From the NCBI GenBank assembly GCA_021496505.1, contig CP053031.1, positions 186,001-250,000 on the forward strand: a stretch of 64,000 bases of DNA, written 5' to 3'. This document shows positions 4,115 to 27,108 of this stretch, one piece after another; within the stretch, counting starts at the first letter, position 1, and every line of letters begins with the position of its first letter. Origin of the DNA: Thermoleophilia bacterium SCSIO 60948 (GTDB lineage Bacteria; Actinomycetota; Thermoleophilia; Solirubrobacterales; 70-9). The notes beneath the pieces were generated by a model. It ran no database searches. It was not told the DNA's origin and was given only the letters and a program-made list of their open reading frames with translations. The position numbers were made by a program, and so were the translations under genes.

Positions 4115-5178
4115 CCGTCCACGCGAGCCCGGCCGAGATCGAGACCGATCAGCTGCTCGGAATGCTCGAGCGCATGTATCTGATCAGGCGTTTCGAGACC
4201 GAGGCCGAGCGCCAGTACAAGCAGGCCAAGATCGGCGGCTACTGCCACCTGTCCTCCGGTCAGGAGGCGACCTGCGTCGGGACGATGGACGCGATGACCG
4301 ACGACGACCTGCTCGTCACGGGCTATCGCAGCCACGGCTTCGCGCTCGCCCGGCACGTCCCCGCGACCGAGGTCATGGCCGAGCTGTTCGGCCGCGTCGA
4401 CGGCTGCGCGCGCGGCCGCGGCGGTTCGATGCACCTGCTCGACCCCGACCTCGGCTACTACGGCGGCTGGGGGATCGTCGGCGGCCAGCTCCCCGTGGCG
4501 ACGGGTCTCGCGCTCGCGCTCGTGCGCCAGGAGCGCCCCGCCGCCGTCCTCTGCGAGCTCGGTGACGGCGCGGTCAACATGGGCGCCTGGCACGAGTCGC
4601 TCAACCTCGCCTCGCTGTGGGACCTGCCGATCGTCTACCTCGTCGTCAACAACATCTATGGGATGGGAACGTCGGTCGAGCGCGCGTCGGCCGAGCCGGA
4701 GCTCTTTCGCCGCGCTCACGCGCACCGCATGGTCGGCGAGCGGATCGACGGCGACGACATCGAGGAGGTCCACGCCGCGACCTCCGAGCTGCTGCAGACC
4801 GCCCGTGACCGCCACCGTCCGGCGGTGCTCGAGGCACTCACCTACCGCTATCGCGGCCACTCGGTCGCCGACGCCGGGCTCTCCTACCGCGACCGTGACG
4901 AGATCAAGGAGCACCAGGAGCGCGACCCGATCAAGCGCGTGCGATCGGTGCTCAGCGAGCGCGGTGTCGAGGACGAGCAGCTCGACGCCGCCGACGAGCG
5001 GGCCCAGGAGCAGGTCGCCGAGGCGGTCGAGTTCGCCGACGCGAGTCCCGAGCCGCCGCTCGATCAGCTCGCCTACGGGATGTACGCCAAGGGCTCGGAC
5101 AAGCAGTTCGCGAGGATGCGGCCCGGGAGCCCGTTCGGCGAGCGAGAGCTGGTCTTCGACGCGGGGCTGGGTGATTGA
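4111..5178 (+). CDS. Pyruvate/acetoin dehydrogenase E1 component, alpha subunit
   Basis: This 355-residue protein is the thiamine-diphosphate-dependent E1 alpha subunit. With E1 beta it decarboxylates a 2-oxo acid (pyruvate or acetoin) and passes the acyl unit to the E2 lipoyl arm. The TPP motif runs from GDGAVN (residues 151-156) to NN (180-181), and the RGRGGSMHL active-site loop and YRGHSVAD segment are typical. Length is normal. It overlaps gntR by ATGA and the E1 beta region follows at once. Acetoin and pyruvate enzymes are hard to separate by sequence; branched-chain substrates are less likely. Confidence 0.88.
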   Translation: MTVHASPAEIETDQLLGMLERMYLIRRFETEAERQYKQAKIGGYCHLSSGQEATCVGTMDAMTDDDLLVTGYRSHGFALARHVPATEVMAELFGRVDGCARGRGGSMHLLDPDLGYYGGWGIVGGQLPVATGLALALVRQERPAAVLCELGDGAVNMGAWHESLNLASLWDLPIVYLVVNNIYGMGTSVERASAEPELFRRAHAHRMVGERIDGDDIEEVHAATSELLQTARDRHRPAVLEALTYRYRGHSVADAGLSYRDRDEIKEHQERDPIKRVRSVLSERGVEDEQLDAADERAQEQVAEAVEFADASPEPPLDQLAYGMYAKGSDKQFARMRPGSPFGERELVFDAGLGD

Positions 5179-5180
5179 CG

Positions 5181-6317
5181 ATGGCCGCGACCGAGGCCGA
5201 GGAGATGGAGCGAAACCGCGCCGCGCGTGAGGGCAAGGGCTCCGAGGACGGCAAGGTGAGCGAGAACGGATCGTCCGGCGACGCGCAGGCCGAGGAGTCC
5301 TCCGACTCCGGGCCCGACCCCGAGGGCGTCGAGGAGATGACCTACCGCGAGGCGCTTCGCCTCGCGCTGGCCGAGGAGCTCGAACACGACCCGCGCGTGT
5401 TCCTGATGGGCGAGGAGGTCGGCCAGTTCGAGGGCGCCTACAAGGTGTCGGCCGGCCTGATGGACCGCTTCGGTGCCGACCGCGTCCGCGACACGCCGAT
5501 CTCCGAGGAGGGGTTCGTCGGCGCCGGCGTCGGCGCGGCGATGCTCGGCGAGCGTCCGGTCGTCGAGATCATGACCCTCAACTTCCTGCTGGTCGCGATG
5601 GATCAGGTGATCAACCACGCGGCGAAGATCGGGGCGATGTTCGGCGGCATGGTCCGCTGCCCGATGGTCATCCGCACGCCGAACGGAGCCGGCGCCCAGC
5701 TCACGGCGCAGCACTCGCAGAGCTTCGACCAGTGGTTCGCCTCGACGCCGGGTCTCAAGGTCGTCGCGCCGGCCAACCCGCGTGACGCCAAGGGGCTGCT
5801 GAAGGCGGCGATCCGCGACGAGGATCCGGTGCTCGTGATCGAGAATCTCCCGATCTACAAGGAGAAGGGCGAGGTCCCGCTCGACCCCGATTTCACGACG
5901 CCGATCGGACTCGCCGACGTGCCGCGCAAGGGCTCGGACCTGACGCTGATCTCGCACTCGTTCGCGACGAAGCGATGCCTCGACGTCGCCGAGGATCTCG
6001 CCGAGTCCCACGGGCTCGACATCGAGGTCGTCGACTTGCGCTCGCTGCGCCCGCTCGACGTCGAGACGGTCGCCGCCTCGGTGTCGAAGACCTCGCGGGC
6101 GGTCTGCGTCGAGGAGGGCTGGCCGACCTACGGCGTCACGGCGGAGATCGCCGCCCGGATCGGCAAGGCGTGCTTCGACGATCTCGACGCACCGGTAGAA
6201 AGAGTGGGGATGGCGGAGGTGCCGATGCCCTACGCGAAGAACCTTGAGACCGCCGCCCTGCCGGGCGCCGACCGGATCGCAGAGGCGGTCCTCGAGACCC
6301 TGGAGGGTTCCAGATGA
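5181..6317 (+). CDS. Pyruvate/acetoin dehydrogenase E1 component, beta subunit
   Basis: The protein is the beta partner of the E1 heterotetramer. It has the usual transketolase-like pyrimidine-binding domain (GEEVGQFEGAYKVSAGL, then EEGFVGAGVGAAM) and the C-terminal transketolase domain (VVDLRSLRPLDVET, then VCVEEGWPTYG). The ATG two nucleotides after the E1 alpha stop is chosen; a TTG six bases earlier is also possible. The first 45-50 residues are an acidic, Ser/Glu-rich extension absent from most E1 beta proteins, which are about 330 residues long. Its stop overlaps the E2 ATG. Confidence 0.88.
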   Translation: MAATEAEEMERNRAAREGKGSEDGKVSENGSSGDAQAEESSDSGPDPEGVEEMTYREALRLALAEELEHDPRVFLMGEEVGQFEGAYKVSAGLMDRFGADRVRDTPISEEGFVGAGVGAAMLGERPVVEIMTLNFLLVAMDQVINHAAKIGAMFGGMVRCPMVIRTPNGAGAQLTAQHSQSFDQWFASTPGLKVVAPANPRDAKGLLKAAIRDEDPVLVIENLPIYKEKGEVPLDPDFTTPIGLADVPRKGSDLTLISHSFATKRCLDVAEDLAESHGLDIEVVDLRSLRPLDVETVAASVSKTSRAVCVEEGWPTYGVTAEIAARIGKACFDDLDAPVERVGMAEVPMPYAKNLETAALPGADRIAEAVLETLEGSR

Positions 6318-15949: not shown

Positions 15950-16723
15950 ATGGAGACCACGTTCTGGGAATCCAACGGCGAATGGATCACGGCCGCGATC
16001 ACCTTCGGCGTCGCGATCTTGATCGCGATCGGCATCGACCGCCTGCTCTTCGGCCGCGTCGGAGAGGCCGCCAAGAGGGTCACCGACGCCTCGATCTCGC
16101 GCGCGGCGACGACCCGGCTGCGGGTCGTCCGGCGGCTCGTCTTCGTCCTGATCGTCCTGATCGGTCTCGCGCTGGCTCTCGGGCAGTTCACCGGCATCCA
16201 GCGGATCGCGACCGGGCTGCTCGCCTCGACCGCCGTCATCGGACTCGTCTTCGGTCTCGCCGCGCGCCAGGTCCTCGCGAATCCGCTCGCGGGGATCCTG
16301 CTCGCCTTCACGCAACCGATCCGGATCGGCGACACGATCACGATCGACGAGCACACAGGGCGGGTCGATGACCTCAAGCTCTCCTACACCTACATCGACA
16401 AGGGCGACGGACAGCTGATGATCGTCCCGAACGAGCAGGTGGTCACCAGCGTCGTCTTCAACAAGTCGACCGGTAACCCGGCGGCGCCGGCGCTGGCCTC
16501 GGTCTGGATGCCGCTCGCCGCCGACGTCGCCGCGGCGCGCAAGGCGCTCGAGCCACTCGAGCTCTCCTCGATCCAGGTCGCGGAGATCACGGCCGAGGGC
16601 GTCAGGCTCGAGGTTCGCGGCCCCGCCGGCTCTTCTCGGACCGCGGCCTCAGGCGAGGAGGCGGCGCTGCGCTCGCGCGCCCACCAGGCGCTCTTCGACG
16701 CGGGCCTCCTGGACGCCGGCTGA
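15950..16723 (+). CDS. Small-conductance mechanosensitive channel (MscS family)
   Basis: The 257-residue protein has three predicted membrane segments (about residues 14-32, 58-80 and 86-110). The pore helix and loop segment includes GLVFGLAARQVLANPLAGILLAF. A beta domain (IRIGDTITIDEHTGRVDD) and a shortened C-terminal domain follow. It would release solutes under hypo-osmotic shock. An earlier in-frame ATG overlaps the start of the divergent HAD gene, so the later ATG in METTFWESN is preferred. Confidence 0.82.
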   Translation: METTFWESNGEWITAAITFGVAILIAIGIDRLLFGRVGEAAKRVTDASISRAATTRLRVVRRLVFVLIVLIGLALALGQFTGIQRIATGLLASTAVIGLVFGLAARQVLANPLAGILLAFTQPIRIGDTITIDEHTGRVDDLKLSYTYIDKGDGQLMIVPNEQVVTSVVFNKSTGNPAAPALASVWMPLAADVAAARKALEPLELSSIQVAEITAEGVRLEVRGPAGSSRTAASGEEAALRSRAHQALFDAGLLDAG

Positions 16724-16727
16724 TAGC

Positions 16728-16746
16728 GCCTGAGTCCTTTTCAGGC
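16728..16746 (+). terminator. Hairpin after mscS-like gene
   Basis: A perfect inverted repeat GCCTGA / TCAGGC encloses the loop GTCCTTT, four nt after the stop codon. There is no T-run after the stem, so it is a moderate terminator candidate that would separate the channel gene from the SipW cassette. Confidence 0.4.
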
Positions 16747-16759
16747 CCGCAGCGTGCTT

Positions 16760-16773
16760 CGCAAACGTTTGCG
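16760..16773 (+). promoter_or_regulatory. Perfect 14-bp palindrome, LacI/PurR-operator-like
   Basis: CGCAAACGTTTGCG is its own reverse complement and has the AACGTT centre typical of LacI/GalR-family operators; it is very close to the E. coli PurR box consensus. It lies about 100 nt upstream of the first gene of the SipW cassette in an otherwise gene-free, relatively A/T-rich stretch. No LacI-type regulator gene is in the window. Control of the cassette is inferred from position only. Confidence 0.45.
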
Positions 16774-16874
16774 CGCCGAATTTCTCGCGCGCGCGTTCAA
16801 GTTTCCTCGTCGGCCGCCGATATCTCGGACCGACGCGCCTGAGTCACCGGCGCGAAAGCGAAAAGGGGGGAACC

Positions 16875-17447
16875 TTGAAGACTCGTCTCGCGCGTCTCGC
16901 AGCGCAGCCCAAGCGCACGCTCGCAGGTCTCACCGTGGTCCTGCTGGCGGGCGGACTCGCCGTCGGCTCGGGTGCCAACTTCAGCGCTCAGTCGGCCAAC
17001 CCGTCGAACCAGTTCACGGCCGGAACGCTGACGATGTCGAACTCGAAGGACAACGCGGCGATCCTCACGGCTTCGAACATGAAGCCCGGCGACTCGGCGA
17101 CCGGCACGGTCGACATCGCCAACACCGGGTCGATCGGCAGCACCTTCAGCGTTTCGCGCACCGCGCTGACCAACTCCGACTCGACCAACCCGATGGCGAA
17201 CAAGCTGAACCTCGTCATCAAGGACTGCGGCACGTTCTCGGGCACGACGGCGCCGACCTGTGACGCGGGCGATCCGAGCCGCTACACCGGGACGATCGCG
17301 GCGATGTCCTCCGCGCAGTCGCTCGGCAGCTACGCCGCCAACGACAAGCACCGCTACGAGTTCACCGTCACCTTCGACGGCTCGGCCGGCAACGAGTACC
17401 AGGGCGACAGCTCGACGACGACGTTCACCTGGGACGCGGCTCAGTAG
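16875..17447 (+). CDS. Secreted SipW-type substrate, TasA/camelysin-like
   Basis: The 190-residue protein starts with TTG behind a strong GGGGGG site. It has a basic start, a hydrophobic segment (about residues 16-33) and the signature of SipW-dependent exported proteins right after it (NFSAQSANPSNQFTAGTL). The rest is a Thr/Ser/Asn-rich beta-type domain with SATGTVDIANTGS, like TasA and camelysin, and one likely disulphide pair (KDCGTFSGTTAPTC). TasA proteins form extracellular fibres in Bacillus; fibre formation here is inference. The peptidase gene follows 22 nt on. Confidence 0.75.
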   Translation: MKTRLARLAAQPKRTLAGLTVVLLAGGLAVGSGANFSAQSANPSNQFTAGTLTMSNSKDNAAILTASNMKPGDSATGTVDIANTGSIGSTFSVSRTALTNSDSTNPMANKLNLVIKDCGTFSGTTAPTCDAGDPSRYTGTIAAMSSAQSLGSYAANDKHRYEFTVTFDGSAGNEYQGDSSTTTFTWDAAQ

Positions 17448-17469
17448 GAGCCATCCGCAGGAGCTCGGC

Positions 17470-18051
17470 ATGGCGATCGCCATGCGCAGGGGGAGTCGGA
17501 CCCAGCGCCGCGGCGGACGCCGCGGCGCTCGGCTTCGCGGCGCCGTCGGGTGGCTGATCTCGCTCTGCGGTCTCGCCGTCGCGCTCGCCGTCGTGCTCGC
17601 GCCGCTGCTCGGGATCGAGCGCTACGTGATCACGGGCGGGTCGATGGGCGAGGCGGTGCCGATCGGCTCGATCGCCTTCGAGGAGGTCGTGCCGACCGAG
17701 GAGCTCGTCGAAGGCGACGTGATCACCTACCAGCCGCCGGCCGAGTCGGGCGAGGAGGGTCTCGTCACCCACCGCATCGTCGCGATGCGAGAGCGCGACG
17801 GCGCCACCGTCCTGCGCACGAAGGGTGATGCGAACCTCAGTCCCGACCCGTGGCGCTTCGAGCTCGGCGCGCCGACGCAGGGGCGCGTCCTCTTCTCCGT
17901 GCCGCTCGTCGGCTACGCGATCGGCGCGCTCGGCGACCGCGAGGTGCGGATCGCGTTGATCGGATTCCCGGCGCTGCTGATCGCGATCTCCGCCGTGCGC
18001 CGTCTGTGGCGAGAGTCCTCGGCGCCCGACGGGAAGCCAGAGCCCCTGTGA
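17470..18051 (+). CDS. sipW: SipW-type (ER/archaeal-type) signal peptidase I
   Basis: The 193-residue protein has an Arg-rich start, a membrane anchor (about residues 26-47) and the Ser/His form of the S26 site: Ser58 in TGGSMGEAVP, His101 in VTHRIVAM instead of the Lys of LepB, and KGDAN at 118-122. A second membrane segment lies near the C-terminus (about 160-178). SipW enzymes process dedicated substrates such as TasA. Flanking genes encode two probable substrates, and the downstream GTG overlaps its stop. AGGAG precedes the ATG. Confidence 0.85.
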   Translation: MAIAMRRGSRTQRRGGRRGARLRGAVGWLISLCGLAVALAVVLAPLLGIERYVITGGSMGEAVPIGSIAFEEVVPTEELVEGDVITYQPPAESGEEGLVTHRIVAMRERDGATVLRTKGDANLSPDPWRFELGAPTQGRVLFSVPLVGYAIGALGDREVRIALIGFPALLIAISAVRRLWRESSAPDGKPEPL

Positions 18052-19064
18052 GCGGGCGCCGGCCCCGCGGCCGGGTGGCCGCGCTCGTACTCTTCTCGGC
18101 GTCCGTCGCTCTCGGGTCGCTGGCCGCGGACGAGTCCTCGACCGCACTCTTCTCCGACGCCTCCTCGAACCCGTCGAACGGCTTCGCCGCGAACTCGAGC
18201 TTCACCCGCGGGATGGCGTCGGGCACCTACTCGGGCAACGGCACCGACGGCCGTCAGATCACCGGACTCGGCTTTCGCCCCGACATCGTGACCGTGAAGG
18301 CGACCACGGCCCAGGGGGCCGTCATCCGAACGCGGACGATGACCGGCGACCAGACGAAGCCGGTCAACGGCGCGACGGCGATCGGCGCCAACCGGATCGA
18401 GGCGCTCGGCGCCGACGGCTTCCAGCTCGGCACCGACGCCACCGTCAACTCCTCCGGCGTCAGCTACCAGTGGTGGGCGGCGACGACGCGCAACGGCCAG
18501 ATCGCGGTGGGCTCCTATGTCGGCGACGGCGCCTCCGCGCGCGACGTCGCGACTCCGGGGATGGCGCCCGAGGCGGTCCTGCTCCTGCCGGCCTCGGCGA
18601 CGAGCGTCCCGATCCTGATGAGCGGGATGAGCGCGGCCACCCGTCTCGATACGCAGACGACGGTCCCGAACTCGATCACCGCGCTCGACTCCGACGGGTT
18701 CCAGATCGGCGGTTCGTCGTCGGCGAACACGAGCGCGATCGACTACCACTGGATCGCATTCTCCGAGTCCGCCGGGTCCGTCGACGTCGGCTCCTACACC
18801 GGCAACAACATGAACAACAGGTCGGTCTCCGGGCTCGGGTTCACGCCGGCCTTCGCTCTCGTCAGGGCGGCTCCGACGGCGTCGCGAAACGGGGTCTTCC
18901 GCGCTGCCGGGTGGACCGGGAACGCGTCGTCCTACTTCTCCGCGACCGCGAACCCGACGACCGGCATCACGGCCCTGGCCGGTGGCGGGTTCACCGTCGG
19001 CAACCTCACGCACGTCAACGCCAACGGCGTCACCTTCCACTACCTCGCGCTGGCCGACTTCTGA
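18048..19064 (+). CDS. Secreted three-repeat protein, probable second SipW substrate
   Basis: The 338-residue protein has a signal segment (about residues 9-27) followed by LFSDASSNPSNGF, closely matching the processed end of the cassette's first protein. The mature part is three repeats of about 90 residues (58-147, 153-239, 246-336). Each begins with GxYxGNxxxxRxxxGLGFxP and ends with DGFxxGxxxxxNxxGVxYxWxA. The pattern recalls DUF7483-like surface repeats. It starts with GTG overlapping the peptidase stop. It is probably a surface or appendage protein; the binding partner is unknown. Confidence 0.75.
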   Translation: MSGRRPRGRVAALVLFSASVALGSLAADESSTALFSDASSNPSNGFAANSSFTRGMASGTYSGNGTDGRQITGLGFRPDIVTVKATTAQGAVIRTRTMTGDQTKPVNGATAIGANRIEALGADGFQLGTDATVNSSGVSYQWWAATTRNGQIAVGSYVGDGASARDVATPGMAPEAVLLLPASATSVPILMSGMSAATRLDTQTTVPNSITALDSDGFQIGGSSSANTSAIDYHWIAFSESAGSVDVGSYTGNNMNNRSVSGLGFTPAFALVRAAPTASRNGVFRAAGWTGNASSYFSATANPTTGITALAGGGFTVGNLTHVNANGVTFHYLALADF

Positions 19065-19181
19065 CCCCGGGCGCTCCGTTTCAGCGGTAGGAGGCCACGG
19101 CGGGGCGCGGTAAGGAGATCGCGGAGCCGTTCGCCGGGCGTGGAACCGCCCTCCGGGCGCCGCTACCCTCCCCCGTCGGCA

Positions 19182-21260
19182 ATGTCCCAGCGCTCACGCA
19201 AGAGACACCACCGCTCGCGCGGTTCGGCGCTCAAGCTGATCGGCATCGCGATGGGCGTTTTCGTGCTCATCGTCGGGATCGCGCTGGCCGGCGTCGGGCT
19301 CTGGGTGCAGAACGTCGTAGCCGACGTCTCGATCGACGAGCTCAAGCCGATCAAGCGCGGCGAGACCTCGAAGATCTACGCCTCCGACGGCTCGCTGCTC
19401 GGCGCCGTTCCCTCGGACACGATCCGCGAGCCGGCGAAGCTCGAGGAGATCCCGAAGTCGCTCCAGCAGGCGACCATCGCGATCGAGGACGAGAACTTCT
19501 ACGACCACTCGGGCGTCGACTTCGGCGCCGTCGTGCGAGCCGCGATCGTCAACTTCGAGGCCGGCGAGGTCCGCCAGGGCGGCTCGACGATCACGCAGCA
19601 GCTCGTCAAGAACCTCTACATCGCCGACCCGGATGAGACGGTCGAGCGCAAGATCATCGAGGCCGAGCTGGCGCGCCAGTACGAGGAGGAGCACACGAAG
19701 CGCTACATCCTCGGCCAGTACCTGAACACGGCGACCTACGGCACGAACGGCGGCCGGACCGCCGTCGGCGTCAAGGTCGCCGCTCGCGTCTACTTCTCCA
19801 AGGACCTCAAGGACCTCGACCTCGACGAGTCTGCGCTGCTGGCCGGCATGCCGCAGGCGCCCTCCGAGTACAACCCGTTCCTCAACCCCGACGACGCGCT
19901 CGCGCGTCGCAACCTCGTGCTGCGGGCGATGCGCGACGAGGGCTATATCGACCAGAACCAGTACGTGCGTGCTCGCAAGGACGGCCTCGGCCTCGAGCAG
20001 TCCAAGGAGTACGAGGAGATCAAGGAGCCGGACGTCTTCAACTTCGTCCTCGGAGACCTGATCGACCGCTACGGCGTCAACACGGTCCGCAACGGCGGGC
20101 TGAAGGTCTATACGACGGTCGACCCCGATCTTCAGGCGCTGGCTTCGGACATCCTCCAGAGCCAGTATCCGGGTGGCTCGGGGCCGGCGGGCGCGATCGC
20201 GTCGGTCGACGTCGACAGCGGCGACATCATCGCGATCGCCTCCTCGCGCGGCACCGGTCAGGAGCAGTTCAACGTCGCCTCGCAGGGGCACCGACAGCCC
20301 GGCTCTTCGTTCAAGACCTTCGTCCTCACCGAGGCGGTCCTCCAGGGTGCGGATCCCGACTCGACCTTCTACAACGCCTACCCCTCGATCGACCTGACCG
20401 AGGAGGCCGGGACTCCGTTCCCGGTCCAGGGCACGCAGTCGGGCTCGCTCAGCCTGCGGACCGCGACGACCTCGTCGGACAACACCGTCTTCGCTCAGCT
20501 CGGACTCGACGTCGGGCCGGAGAACACCGCCGAGCTCGCGGGCGAGATGGGGGTCGACACGAAGCTCGACGGGCTTCCGGCCGAGGCGCTGGGCGGTCTG
20601 ACGATCGGCGTCTCGCCACTCGAGATGGCCGACGCCTACGCGACGCTCGCGAGCGGCGGAGTGCACCACGAGCAGACCGCGATCGACCGCGTCGAGTTTC
20701 CGAACGGCGAGGTCGATGAGCCCGAGCAGCAGGCGAGTCAGCGCGTCTTCTCCGACGGCGTCGCGGCGACCGTGACCGACGTCCTCGAATCCAACGTCGA
20801 GGGCGGCACCGGCACCGAGGCGAACTACGGCTGCCCGGCGGCGGGCAAGACCGGAACCACGGACGCCAACGCGGACGTCTGGTTCGTCGGTTACACGCCG
20901 AACGTCTCGACCGCCGTCTGGGTCGGCTACCCCGACGCGACGACCTCGCTCGGCTCGGCCTCCTTCGGCGGCACGATCTCGGCGCCGCTGTGGAACCAGT
21001 TCATGTCGCAGGCCGACCCGAGCTGCGACGACTTCCCGGAGCCGCAGAATCCCGCCGATCTGGGCAGCTTCAGCGGCTCGCTCTCCGGGAGTTCGGGCGA
21101 CACGAGCTCGAGCACCACAGACACGACGGACGCGACAGGCGTCTCACCGGTCACCCCGGCCGCGCCGACCGACACGACGACGCCGGCGGCGCCCGATGCC
21201 GATGCCGACGGCGACGGCTTCGACGACGGCGCCTACGCGCCGGGCGTCCAGGACCCCTAG
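19182..21260 (+). CDS. Class A penicillin-binding protein (transglycosylase/transpeptidase)
   Basis: The 692-residue protein polymerises and cross-links peptidoglycan. A membrane anchor (about residues 18-42) precedes the GT51 domain (Glu102 in AIEDENFYDHSG, then GGSTITQQLVKNLY) and the transpeptidase domain (Ser375-x-x-Lys378 in PGSSFKTF, SDN at 432-434, and KTGTTD). The C-terminal tail is rich in Ser, Thr, Pro and Asp and probably extends into the wall. The ATG of MSQRSRK is chosen over an upstream GTG with a Pro-rich lead-in. It resembles PBP1A types of Actinobacteria. Confidence 0.9.
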   Translation: MSQRSRKRHHRSRGSALKLIGIAMGVFVLIVGIALAGVGLWVQNVVADVSIDELKPIKRGETSKIYASDGSLLGAVPSDTIREPAKLEEIPKSLQQATIAIEDENFYDHSGVDFGAVVRAAIVNFEAGEVRQGGSTITQQLVKNLYIADPDETVERKIIEAELARQYEEEHTKRYILGQYLNTATYGTNGGRTAVGVKVAARVYFSKDLKDLDLDESALLAGMPQAPSEYNPFLNPDDALARRNLVLRAMRDEGYIDQNQYVRARKDGLGLEQSKEYEEIKEPDVFNFVLGDLIDRYGVNTVRNGGLKVYTTVDPDLQALASDILQSQYPGGSGPAGAIASVDVDSGDIIAIASSRGTGQEQFNVASQGHRQPGSSFKTFVLTEAVLQGADPDSTFYNAYPSIDLTEEAGTPFPVQGTQSGSLSLRTATTSSDNTVFAQLGLDVGPENTAELAGEMGVDTKLDGLPAEALGGLTIGVSPLEMADAYATLASGGVHHEQTAIDRVEFPNGEVDEPEQQASQRVFSDGVAATVTDVLESNVEGGTGTEANYGCPAAGKTGTTDANADVWFVGYTPNVSTAVWVGYPDATTSLGSASFGGTISAPLWNQFMSQADPSCDDFPEPQNPADLGSFSGSLSGSSGDTSSSTTDTTDATGVSPVTPAAPTDTTTPAAPDADADGDGFDDGAYAPGVQDP

Positions 21261-24958: not shown

Positions 24959-25663
24959 TTGAACACACCCCCGGCCTCGGCGCGGATCCTGCTCGTCGAC
25001 GACGAGCGCTCGATCCAGACGATGCTGGGCTTCCCGCTCCAGAAGGACGGCTACGAGCTCGTCCCGGCGTTGAACGGCCGCGAGGCGCTCGATCGCTTCG
25101 CCGACGGCGGGATCGACCTCGTGATCCTCGACCTGATGATGCCCGGCATCGACGGGCTCGAGGTCTGCCGACGGCTTCGCGCGCGGAGCGGTGTCCCGAT
25201 CATCATCCTGACCGCGCGCGACGACGAGTCGAGCAAGGTCGCCGGGCTCGAGATGGGAGCCGACGACTACATCACCAAGCCGTTCTCGCTGCGCGAGTTC
25301 CGCAGCCGGGTCCGCGCCGCTCTGCGCCGTTCGATGATGGCGCCGACCTTCGACGGGCAGGAGCCGATCCGCTCGCACGACCTCGAGATCGATCTCGCCA
25401 GGCGCAGCGTCAGCGTCCGCGGGGAGCAGGTCAAGCTGACCTACGTCGAGTTCGAGGTCTTGGTCGCGATGGCGCGCCACCCCGGGCGCGTGTTCACCCG
25501 TGAGGCCCTGCTCGAGGCCGTCTGGGGGAGCTCGGAGTACCGCGACACGCGCACGATCGACGTCCACATCCGCCACCTGCGCGAGAAGCTCGAGCGCGAC
25601 CCGGCGCACCCTGAGTACCTGTTCACCGTTCGCGGCGCGGGCTACGGGTTCCGCGAGGGATGA
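24959..25663 (+). CDS. OmpR/PhoB-family response regulator
   Basis: The 234-residue protein has a receiver domain (acidic LLVDDE, phospho-acceptor Asp58 in LVILDLMMPG, and TKPF with the conserved Lys). A winged-helix domain follows (LTYVEFEVLVAMARHPGRVFTREALLEAVWG, then TIDVHIRHLREKLE and FTVRGAGYGF). TTG is the likely start, since no ATG or GTG is in frame nearby. It overlaps the histidine kinase start by ATGA and lies with an HtrA-type protease, a layout common for envelope-stress circuits. Confidence 0.88.
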   Translation: MNTPPASARILLVDDERSIQTMLGFPLQKDGYELVPALNGREALDRFADGGIDLVILDLMMPGIDGLEVCRRLRARSGVPIIILTARDDESSKVAGLEMGADDYITKPFSLREFRSRVRAALRRSMMAPTFDGQEPIRSHDLEIDLARRSVSVRGEQVKLTYVEFEVLVAMARHPGRVFTREALLEAVWGSSEYRDTRTIDVHIRHLREKLERDPAHPEYLFTVRGAGYGFREG

Positions 25664-27108
25664 CGAGCACCGCCGGCGCTCGCGGCCGGCGCTTTCGCGT
25701 CCGCACGAGCGTCCGCAACCGCCTCGTCCTGTTGTTCTTCGCGATCACCGCCGCGGCGGTCGGCTTCATCTACCTCTACGTCGTCCCGCAGCTCCGCTCG
25801 AGCCTCACCGCCGAGCGCCTCGATGCGCTCGAGGACGCCGCGGCCGAGCAGCGCCGCGGGTTCGACAGGCTCATCGCCGACACGCCGGGCGACCGTGCGA
25901 TCACGGACGCGATCGACGACGTCGCGCGCCAGAGCGGGGCGCGCGTGACGGTCCTCGGCGTCCGCGGCGACGAGCCGGCGTTCGTCATCGGCGACTCCTC
26001 GGCCGAGCGCAGCGCGGTCGAGGCCGCCTATCCCGCCGCCCAGGAGGCACTGCGCACGGGTGCCGCGTCGCCGGCGATCGAGCGCGTGGGGGCGACCCGG
26101 ATCGGCGAGGTCGCGTTCCCGGTCGAGAGCGACGGCGAGCCGGTATGGGCGGTCGTGCTCTCGACCGATCTCGAGCCGGTCGACGAGACCGTCTCGCTCG
26201 TCCGCCGCCAGATCGTGATCGCCGGTGTGATCGCGCTCGCGCTCGCGCTCGCGGCGGGCTGGCTCGCGGCCCGCGAGCACGCAGCCCGGTTGCGTCGGCT
26301 CGAGCGCGCGGCGTTCCAGATCGCCGGCGGCGACTTCACGCGGCCGATCCGCGTCGACCGCCGCGACGAGGTCGGAGAGATCGCCGTCGCGCTCGACGAG
26401 ATGCGCGAGCGGCTCGCCCAGCTCGACAACGCGCGCAAGGAGTTCATCGCCAACGCCTCGCACGAGCTGCGAACGCCGATCTTCTCGCTCGGGGGCTTCA
26501 TCGAGCTGCTCGACGAGGAGGACCCCGACCCCGAGCAGCGGGCCGAGTTCGTGCGGATGATGCGCGGCCAGATCAATCGGCTGACCAAGCTGACGGCGGA
26601 TCTGCTCGACCTCTCGAAGCTCGACTCGGGCGCGATGGGGATCGAGCTGCGCGAGATCGACGCCGCCCCGCTCATGCGCCGGATCGCGGCCGACTTCGGC
26701 CCCGCCGCCGAGCGCCACGGCTCGAGGATCAGCGTCCGCGCTCCCGACGGCGCGCTCGTAATCGCCGATCCGGAGAGGCTGGAGCAGGTGCTGCGTATCC
26801 TGATCGACAACGCCTTGAGCCACACCCCTCAGAAAACCCCAGTCCTCGTGTCCGCCGATCGCGGACCGCACGGTCCCCGCCTGCGCGTCTCCGACGAGGG
26901 CCCGGGGATCCCCAGCCGGATGCGCTCGCGCGTCTTCGAGCGCTTCTTCGTCGGCGATGACGCCGGTGGCTCCGGCCTCGGCCTGGCGATCGCCTCCGAG
27001 CTCTGCCGGCGAATGGACGGACGACTCGAGCTGCGCTCCGAGCGTCGCCGCACGACCTTCGAGATCTTGCTGCCCGCCGCGCCGGTCGCGGCCGAGGCGA
27101 CGCGGTGA
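25660..27108 (+). CDS. Sensor histidine kinase
   Basis: The 482-residue kinase has two membrane segments (about residues 22-44 and 184-204) around an extracytoplasmic sensing region of about 140 residues. A HAMP linker (about 205-257), the HisKA box with His268 in NASHELRTP, and an ATP-binding domain (GPGIPSRMRSRVFERFF, GGSGLGLAIASE) follow. It is the partner of the overlapping response regulator. Its own stop overlaps the GTG of the protease gene. The sensing domain is not a family I can name. Confidence 0.88.
   Translation: MTSTAGARGRRFRVRTSVRNRLVLLFFAITAAAVGFIYLYVVPQLRSSLTAERLDALEDAAAEQRRGFDRLIADTPGDRAITDAIDDVARQSGARVTVLGVRGDEPAFVIGDSSAERSAVEAAYPAAQEALRTGAASPAIERVGATRIGEVAFPVESDGEPVWAVVLSTDLEPVDETVSLVRRQIVIAGVIALALALAAGWLAAREHAARLRRLERAAFQIAGGDFTRPIRVDRRDEVGEIAVALDEMRERLAQLDNARKEFIANASHELRTPIFSLGGFIELLDEEDPDPEQRAEFVRMMRGQINRLTKLTADLLDLSKLDSGAMGIELREIDAAPLMRRIAADFGPAAERHGSRISVRAPDGALVIADPERLEQVLRILIDNALSHTPQKTPVLVSADRGPHGPRLRVSDEGPGIPSRMRSRVFERFFVGDDAGGSGLGLAIASELCRRMDGRLELRSERRRTTFEILLPAAPVAAEATR

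What the first reader, a model, noticed from the sequence alone, without database searches (positions are those of the whole stretch)
16760..19064. SipW signal peptidase flanked by two secreted proteins with matching processing sites
A His-type (SipW) signal peptidase gene lies between two exported-protein genes. Both exported proteins carry nearly the same motif right after their hydrophobic signal (FSxxSxNPSNxF, then a small-residue run). That strongly suggests both are dedicated substrates. The first resembles TasA/camelysin; the second is a three-repeat protein. Together they could build an extracellular fibre or surface layer that is not described for this lineage.
Basis: partly seen in the sequence, partly recalled or inferred. 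Interest (0 to 1): 0.7.

Follow-up and report, generated by a model that had tools for sequence, protein, structure and literature searches.

The report
TasA-type fibre operon with swapped accessory
A soil-type actinobacterium carries a three-gene unit that most likely builds a TasA-like surface fibre and a second secreted protein that could plug into it, whose body resembles a phage tail fibre; operons of this kind are known, but this version appears undescribed.

Summary
Three genes lie head to tail: A (16875-17447), a TasA/camelysin-type protein; B (17470-18051), a Ser/His SipW-type signal peptidase; C (18048-19064), a three-repeat DUF7483 protein. Each is single-copy in the 3.4-Mb genome, and the pattern FSxxSxNPSNxF occurs only in A and C. 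The unit sits between an MscS channel gene and a PBP1A gene that are neighbours in 21 relatives, so it was gained or lost as a block. A-SipW is conserved across Actinomycetota (88 of 92 SipW genes). The next gene usually encodes another exported protein with the same N-terminal motif but an unrelated body (64 of 84, against 11 of 920 other genes). One correction: the shared motif lies after the predicted cut (SGA|NF, STA|LF), so it starts the mature protein. There TasA has its donor strand, which TapA copies. A's model matches the TasA fibre best (Z 10.1). Best explanation: SipW frees both N-termini, A polymerises by donor-strand exchange, and C uses the same strand to join the fibre as initiator, anchor or adhesive end. 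C's attachment is inferred; recognition by SipW alone is the main rival. New variant of a known kind (tapA-sipW-tasA).

The parts
16760..16773 (.). perfect palindrome CGCAAACGTTTGCG in the leader of the unit, operator-like (function not tested)
   Evidence: only copy in the genome; absent from the other genomes' loci held
16875..17447 (+). gene A: TasA/camelysin-type fibre subunit, 190 aa
   Evidence: PF12389 over cut-off; only PDB sequence matches are TasA 5of1 and 8aur; model best matches the TasA fibre 8aur, Z 10.1
16980..17015 (+). A: FSAQSANPSNQF, proposed donor strand at the mature N-terminus, after predicted cut SGA|NF
   Evidence: exact pattern hit (G000:C1:202980-203015); residues 31-42 unstructured in the model
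17470..18051 (+). gene B: SipW-type (Ser/His) signal peptidase, 193 aa
   Evidence: TIGR02228 over cut-off; Ser58, His101 and Asp120 invariant in 91 homologues; only copy in the genome
18048..19064 (+). gene C: exported protein with three DUF7483-type repeats, 338 aa; GTG start overlaps B's stop
   Evidence: PF24299 over cut-off; phage tail-fibre relatives; single copy
18150..18185 (+). C: FSDASSNPSNGF, same strand motif, after predicted cut STA|LF
   Evidence: exact pattern hit (G000:C1:204150-204185); residues 1-52 unstructured in the model
16724..19181 (.). interval holding the inserted unit, between MscS (15950-16723) and PBP1A (19182-21260), which are neighbours in 21 relatives, one of them of the same genus

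Best explanation
A, B and C form one transcription and mobility unit that makes a TasA-type extracellular fibre. B (SipW) cuts both precursors after S-x-A and so frees two mature chains that begin with nearly the same strand (NFSAQSANPSNQF in A, LFSDASSNPSNGF in C). A polymerises by donor-strand exchange: its N-terminal strand fills the groove of the next A subunit. C carries the same strand on a body that is not a TasA fold, so it can donate a strand to A but probably cannot accept one. It would therefore sit at one end of the fibre as initiator, anchor or binding head, the role TapA has in Bacillus subtilis. Shown here by computation: gene identities, linkage, single copy, insertion as a block, motif sharing, fold match of A. 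Inferred: cleavage, polymerisation, and attachment of C to A.
For: Motif only in A and C in the whole genome. It follows S-x-A in both, the place of TasA residues 28-38, the donor strand with F29 and F39; TapA's N-terminus (AFHDI) copies TasA's (AFNDI) (PMC9674648, PMC10151520). A keeps the proline-box residues (P71 invariant, G72 and F36 nearly so, in 64 sequences). Best structural matches of A: TasA fibre 8aur Z 10.1, TasA 5of2 8.6, archaeal bundling pilus 7ueg 8.3; type 1 and P pilus subunits about 7. The N-termini of both models are unstructured. A-SipW-third exported gene is conserved across Actinomycetota. Within 22 Thermoleophilia loci the A motif resembles its own third protein's motif more than shuffled partners' (28.6 against 19.3, sd 1.6, p 5e-5) and more than that of nearest SipW relatives (p 0.008). 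A C homologue in a genome with no SipW hit has a different leader. The unit is inserted whole.
Against: No complex of A and C was modelled; no expression or protein data exist. The pairing signal is absent in 45 other actinobacterial loci (19.4 against 21.0), and relatedness may inflate it in Thermoleophilia; 9 of 76 loci were dropped by hand as mis-anchored. In many of those other loci the third protein's motif is poor in NP and in the second aromatic, so conservation is strongest at S-x-A-x-F, which also fits plain SipW recognition. Cleavage sites are read from sequence only.
Confidence: 0.55

Rival explanations
1. The shared motif is only the recognition sequence of SipW. A forms a TasA-like fibre, while C is an independently secreted binding protein that shares the exporter but not the fibre.
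For: The best-conserved part across all third proteins is S-x-A-x-F around the predicted cut (S-x-A in 55 of 67 third proteins and 58 of 67 A proteins); bodies of the third proteins are very different (Ig repeats, DUF7483, CBM96); no within-locus pairing outside Thermoleophilia.
Against: Conservation runs 12 residues into the mature chain in this genome and several relatives (NPxNxF), further than signal peptidases usually read; TapA shows the same likeness and does donate its strand (PMC10151520).
Confidence: 0.33
2. A is a camelysin protease (peptidase M73) and C a substrate or partner.
For: Pfam names the family Camelysin metallo-endopeptidase.
Against: A has no HExxH motif (sequence); closest solved relatives are fibre subunits.
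Confidence: 0.03
3. C is a captured phage tail-fibre domain acting outside the fibre, for example as a secreted decoy or antagonist, placed beside SipW for export only.
For: C's body matches phage proteins (tail-fibre PHROG 1.1e-18; phage records; viral models TM 0.73).
Against: Its slot is filled in most Actinomycetota by other exported repeat proteins with the same N-terminal motif; DUF7483 also occurs with other leaders.
Confidence: 0.04

Closest known systems
tapA-sipW-tasA operon of Bacillus subtilis
   Same: SipW gene between two exported-protein genes, both cut by SipW in B. subtilis; TasA-type subunit; second protein with a TasA-like N-terminal strand (PMC9674648, PMC10151520)
   Different: Order reversed (TasA-type first); accessory is DUF7483 repeats instead of TapA's Ig domain; distant sequence (A and TasA about 20% identical over 133 aligned residues)
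sipW-tasA, capP, calY region of Bacillus cereus
   Same: Two fibre subunits and an accessory assembly protein (CapP), all processed by SipW in the authors' model (PMC13082335)
   Different: CapP is a DUF4047 protein; here one TasA-type subunit only and an unrelated accessory
sipW-bsaABCRSD operon of Clostridium perfringens
   Same: SipW-dependent polymerising matrix protein, further secreted proteins, and a two-component system; response-regulator genes also follow the unit in many actinobacterial relatives (PMC7395162)
   Different: This window has no adjacent two-component genes; accessory proteins not compared
DUF7483 proteins of phages (tail fibre, virion structural)
   Same: Same three-repeat body
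   Different: Here it has a signal peptide and a donor-strand-like N-terminus and is chromosomal beside sipW

Membership tests
TasA/camelysin (Pfam PF12389) | profile match over the curated cut-off | tested here: met
   37.2 bits against 22.5
TasA/camelysin (Pfam PF12389) | TasA-type fold | tested here: met
   8aur Z 10.1, rmsd 3.5, 133 residues; 5of2 Z 8.6; Foldseek 2.9e-6
TasA/camelysin (Pfam PF12389) | N-terminal donor strand with aromatic anchors, and proline box | tested here: met
   F36 nearly invariant, P71 invariant, G72 nearly invariant; F36 and F47 at the spacing of F29 and F39 plus one residue. Sequence features only; strand donation itself not testable here
TasA/camelysin (Pfam PF12389) | forms fibres | not testable with these tools
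   needs electron microscopy
TasA equivalog (NF046066) | score over 450 bits | tested here: not met
   25.3 bits: a relative, not the Bacillus TasA itself
SipW-type signal peptidase (TIGR02228 / S26B) | profile cut-off and Ser-His catalytic residues | tested here: met
   65.8 against 51.85; Ser58 and His101 invariant in 91
Bacillus SipW equivalog (NF046067) | score over 190 bits | tested here: not met
   52.4 bits
SipW-cognate signal (TIGR04088) | score over 19 bits | tested here: not met
   A 11.0 bits, C not listed; the model misses this lineage's version
TapA | N-terminal strand resembling that of TasA, next to sipW | tested here: met
   this is working likeness, not homology
TapA | TapA Ig-type body | tested here: not met
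   body is DUF7483 repeats
DUF7483 (PF24299) | profile match over the curated cut-off | tested here: met
   53.2 against 27

The most novel reading that the evidence does not exclude
Actinomycetota use a TasA-type fibre with an exchangeable end piece: a constant donor strand fused to a replaceable binding body (Ig repeats, or here a three-lobed phage tail-fibre-like head), so that surface specificity changes by swapping one gene beside sipW.
Probability: 0.33. Interest if true: 0.75.

Novelty: new variant of a known kind. Interest (0 to 1): 0.5.

Why it matters
TasA fibres are studied almost only in Bacillus. If the reading is right, donor-strand fibres made by SipW are a general surface system of Actinomycetota, including the little-studied Thermoleophilia. 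The conserved stretch after the SipW cut would be explained as the strand that builds the fibre, not only as a processing signal. The variable third gene would then be a natural set of fibre end pieces, testable with two purified proteins.

Tried and rejected
Camelysin as protease: no HExxH in A. NCBIfam SipW-cognate signal model: below its cut-off at A, silent at C. Sequence search of C against PDB: no match. Fold of C in PDB: best Z 5.6 (C1q-like single-chain trimers, H-type lectins and phage receptor-binding domains), too weak to name a function; only viral DUF7483-type models match well. Sigma-70 promoter scan: none found. Pairing of A and third motifs outside Thermoleophilia: no signal. 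Palindrome 16760-16773: not found in other genomes' loci. Papers on TasA/SipW fibres in Actinomycetota or Thermoleophilia: none found in the open-access library; subscription papers were not searchable, and the archaeal bundling-pilus paper was not held. First family searches failed because of a one-base frame error in C's coordinates, repeated correctly.

Full report
What is there. The window lies in a 3.42-Mb single-contig genome, most likely of the Thermoleophilia (Solirubrobacterales): the closest named contigs holding B relatives are Solirubrobacterales and Solirubrobacteraceae MAGs. Three genes on the + strand, A 16875-17447, B 17470-18051 and C 18048-19064, are packed with 22 nt between A and B and a 4-nt overlap between B and C. 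A is a Pfam Peptidase_M73 (camelysin/TasA) member, B a TIGR02228 signal peptidase, C a DUF7483 protein, all over curated cut-offs. Each is the only match in the genome.

The peptidase. In 91 homologues Ser58, His101 and Asp120 are invariant, the Ser/His arrangement of SipW and eukaryotic-type signal peptidases rather than the Ser/Lys of ordinary SPase I (general knowledge).

The motif. A reads ...VGSGA|NFSAQSANPSNQFTAGT; C reads ...DESSTA|LFSDASSNPSNGFAANS. A degenerate DNA pattern for FSxxSxNPSNxF finds exactly these two places in the genome and none for the reversed control. Reading S-x-A as the cut (inference from sequence; TasA is cut at an equivalent place), the motif is in the mature protein. 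In TasA fibres residues 28-38 are the donor strand, with F29, I32 and F39 as hydrophobic contacts, and TapA's N-terminus resembles this strand and is predicted to fill TasA's groove (PMC9674648; PMC10151520).

Is A a fibre subunit? Its only PDB sequence matches are TasA (5of1, 8aur; E 0.001-0.002), including the proline-box region. An AlphaFold2 model from 64 own and locus sequences has pLDDT above 90 over most of the core and unstructured residues 31-42. Its best structural matches are the TasA fibre (Foldseek 2.9e-6; Z 10.1), TasA crystals (8.6, 8.5) and the archaeal bundling pilus 7ueg (8.3). Unrelated glycosidase domains reach 8.1, so only the first match stands clear; donor-strand pilins (FimG, FimH, PapE) lie near 6.4-7.

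What is C? Three repeats of about 95 residues (24-32 identities in 91-93 aligned), modelled with pLDDT above 90 for most of residues 55-338 and with an unstructured N-terminus. Sequence and structure relatives are phage tail-fibre and virion proteins. Weak PDB resemblance to single-chain C1q trimers, H-type lectins and phage receptor-binding domains (Z at most 5.6) hints at a three-lobed binding head; this is only suggestive. Clear C homologues occur in 4 of 399 genomes of the class, own included. Two of the three others sit beside A and SipW with the motif (G098, G076); the third, G102, gave no SipW hit, and its homologue has another leader (ASWQTPGSGSGYVK). G102 is 84% complete, so absence of SipW there is not certain.

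Context in other genomes. SipW is patchy: 30 of 151 genomes of the order. Among 92 distinct SipW genes in the loci fetched, 88 have an A-type gene within two genes. These loci were fetched by similarity to B, so this is not a census. A further exported protein usually follows: in Nocardioides, Aeromicrobium, Knoellia and Microbacterium relatives a protein of about 600 aa with bacterial Ig repeats, often followed by a small membrane protein and a response regulator. 64 of 84 such third genes carry an S-x-A-x-F type motif behind a hydrophobic stretch, against 11 of 920 other genes, three of which look like such third proteins themselves (the expression was written after seeing examples, so its P value is descriptive only).

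Pairing test. If the strand must fit the A groove, A and the third protein of one genome should resemble each other. In 22 Thermoleophilia loci they do (mean score 28.6 against 19.3, sd 1.6; 1 in 20,001), also against the third proteins of the five nearest SipW relatives (Wilcoxon p 0.008). In 45 other loci they do not. The group was assigned by me from record titles and the order-level search, and 9 mis-anchored loci were left out. The result supports but does not prove the strand model.

Insertion as a unit. In 23 of 41 family genomes the neighbouring MscS gene was found. In 21 of the 22 other than our own, the PBP1A gene follows MscS within the 1.5-kb flank, including the same-genus genome G132 (94 nt gap) and G098 (gap 133 nt). 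G098 carries its own A-B-C unit elsewhere. So the unit was gained or lost whole, and lies at two different places in the two genomes, which supports joint function.

Mechanism, with status. (1) B cuts A and C: inferred, strong. (2) A polymerises by donor-strand exchange: inferred from fold and motif. (3) C joins through its strand at one end: inferred, moderate. (4) C's head binds a surface or sugar: speculative.

Relation to the known. It works like tapA-sipW-tasA of B. subtilis, the sipW-tasA/capP/calY region of B. cereus and sipW-bsaA of C. perfringens (PMC9674648, PMC10151520, PMC13082335, PMC7395162). A belongs to the TasA/camelysin family; C is not TapA or CapP. I found no paper on this in Actinomycetota in the open library, which does not exclude one elsewhere. 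Verdict: a new variant of a known kind.

Noticed in passing
window 16760-16773: Perfect 14-nt palindrome CGCAAACGTTTGCG (LacI-family-operator-like shape) upstream of gene A, the only copy in the genome.
   Followed up: partly
L144 4838-7581 (genome G102): A DUF7483 protein and a neighbouring exported protein (4838-5467) share a different post-signal motif (W-x-x-x-GxGSGYxKx), with genes resembling the window's response regulator and histidine kinase just upstream: possibly another exported set with a matched N-terminal segment.
   Followed up: no
L036-L098, downstream of SipW: In Nocardioides and Microbacterium relatives the unit continues with a small membrane protein of about 130 aa, a response regulator and a gene of about 415 aa, recalling sipW-bsaABCRSD of C. 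perfringens.
   Followed up: partly
L062 and L064 (Aeromicrobium): Near-duplicate TasA-type genes flank SipW on both sides, before the Ig-repeat gene.
   Followed up: no
window 24959-27108: Response regulator and sensor kinase pair about 6 kb downstream of the unit; link to it unknown.
   Followed up: no
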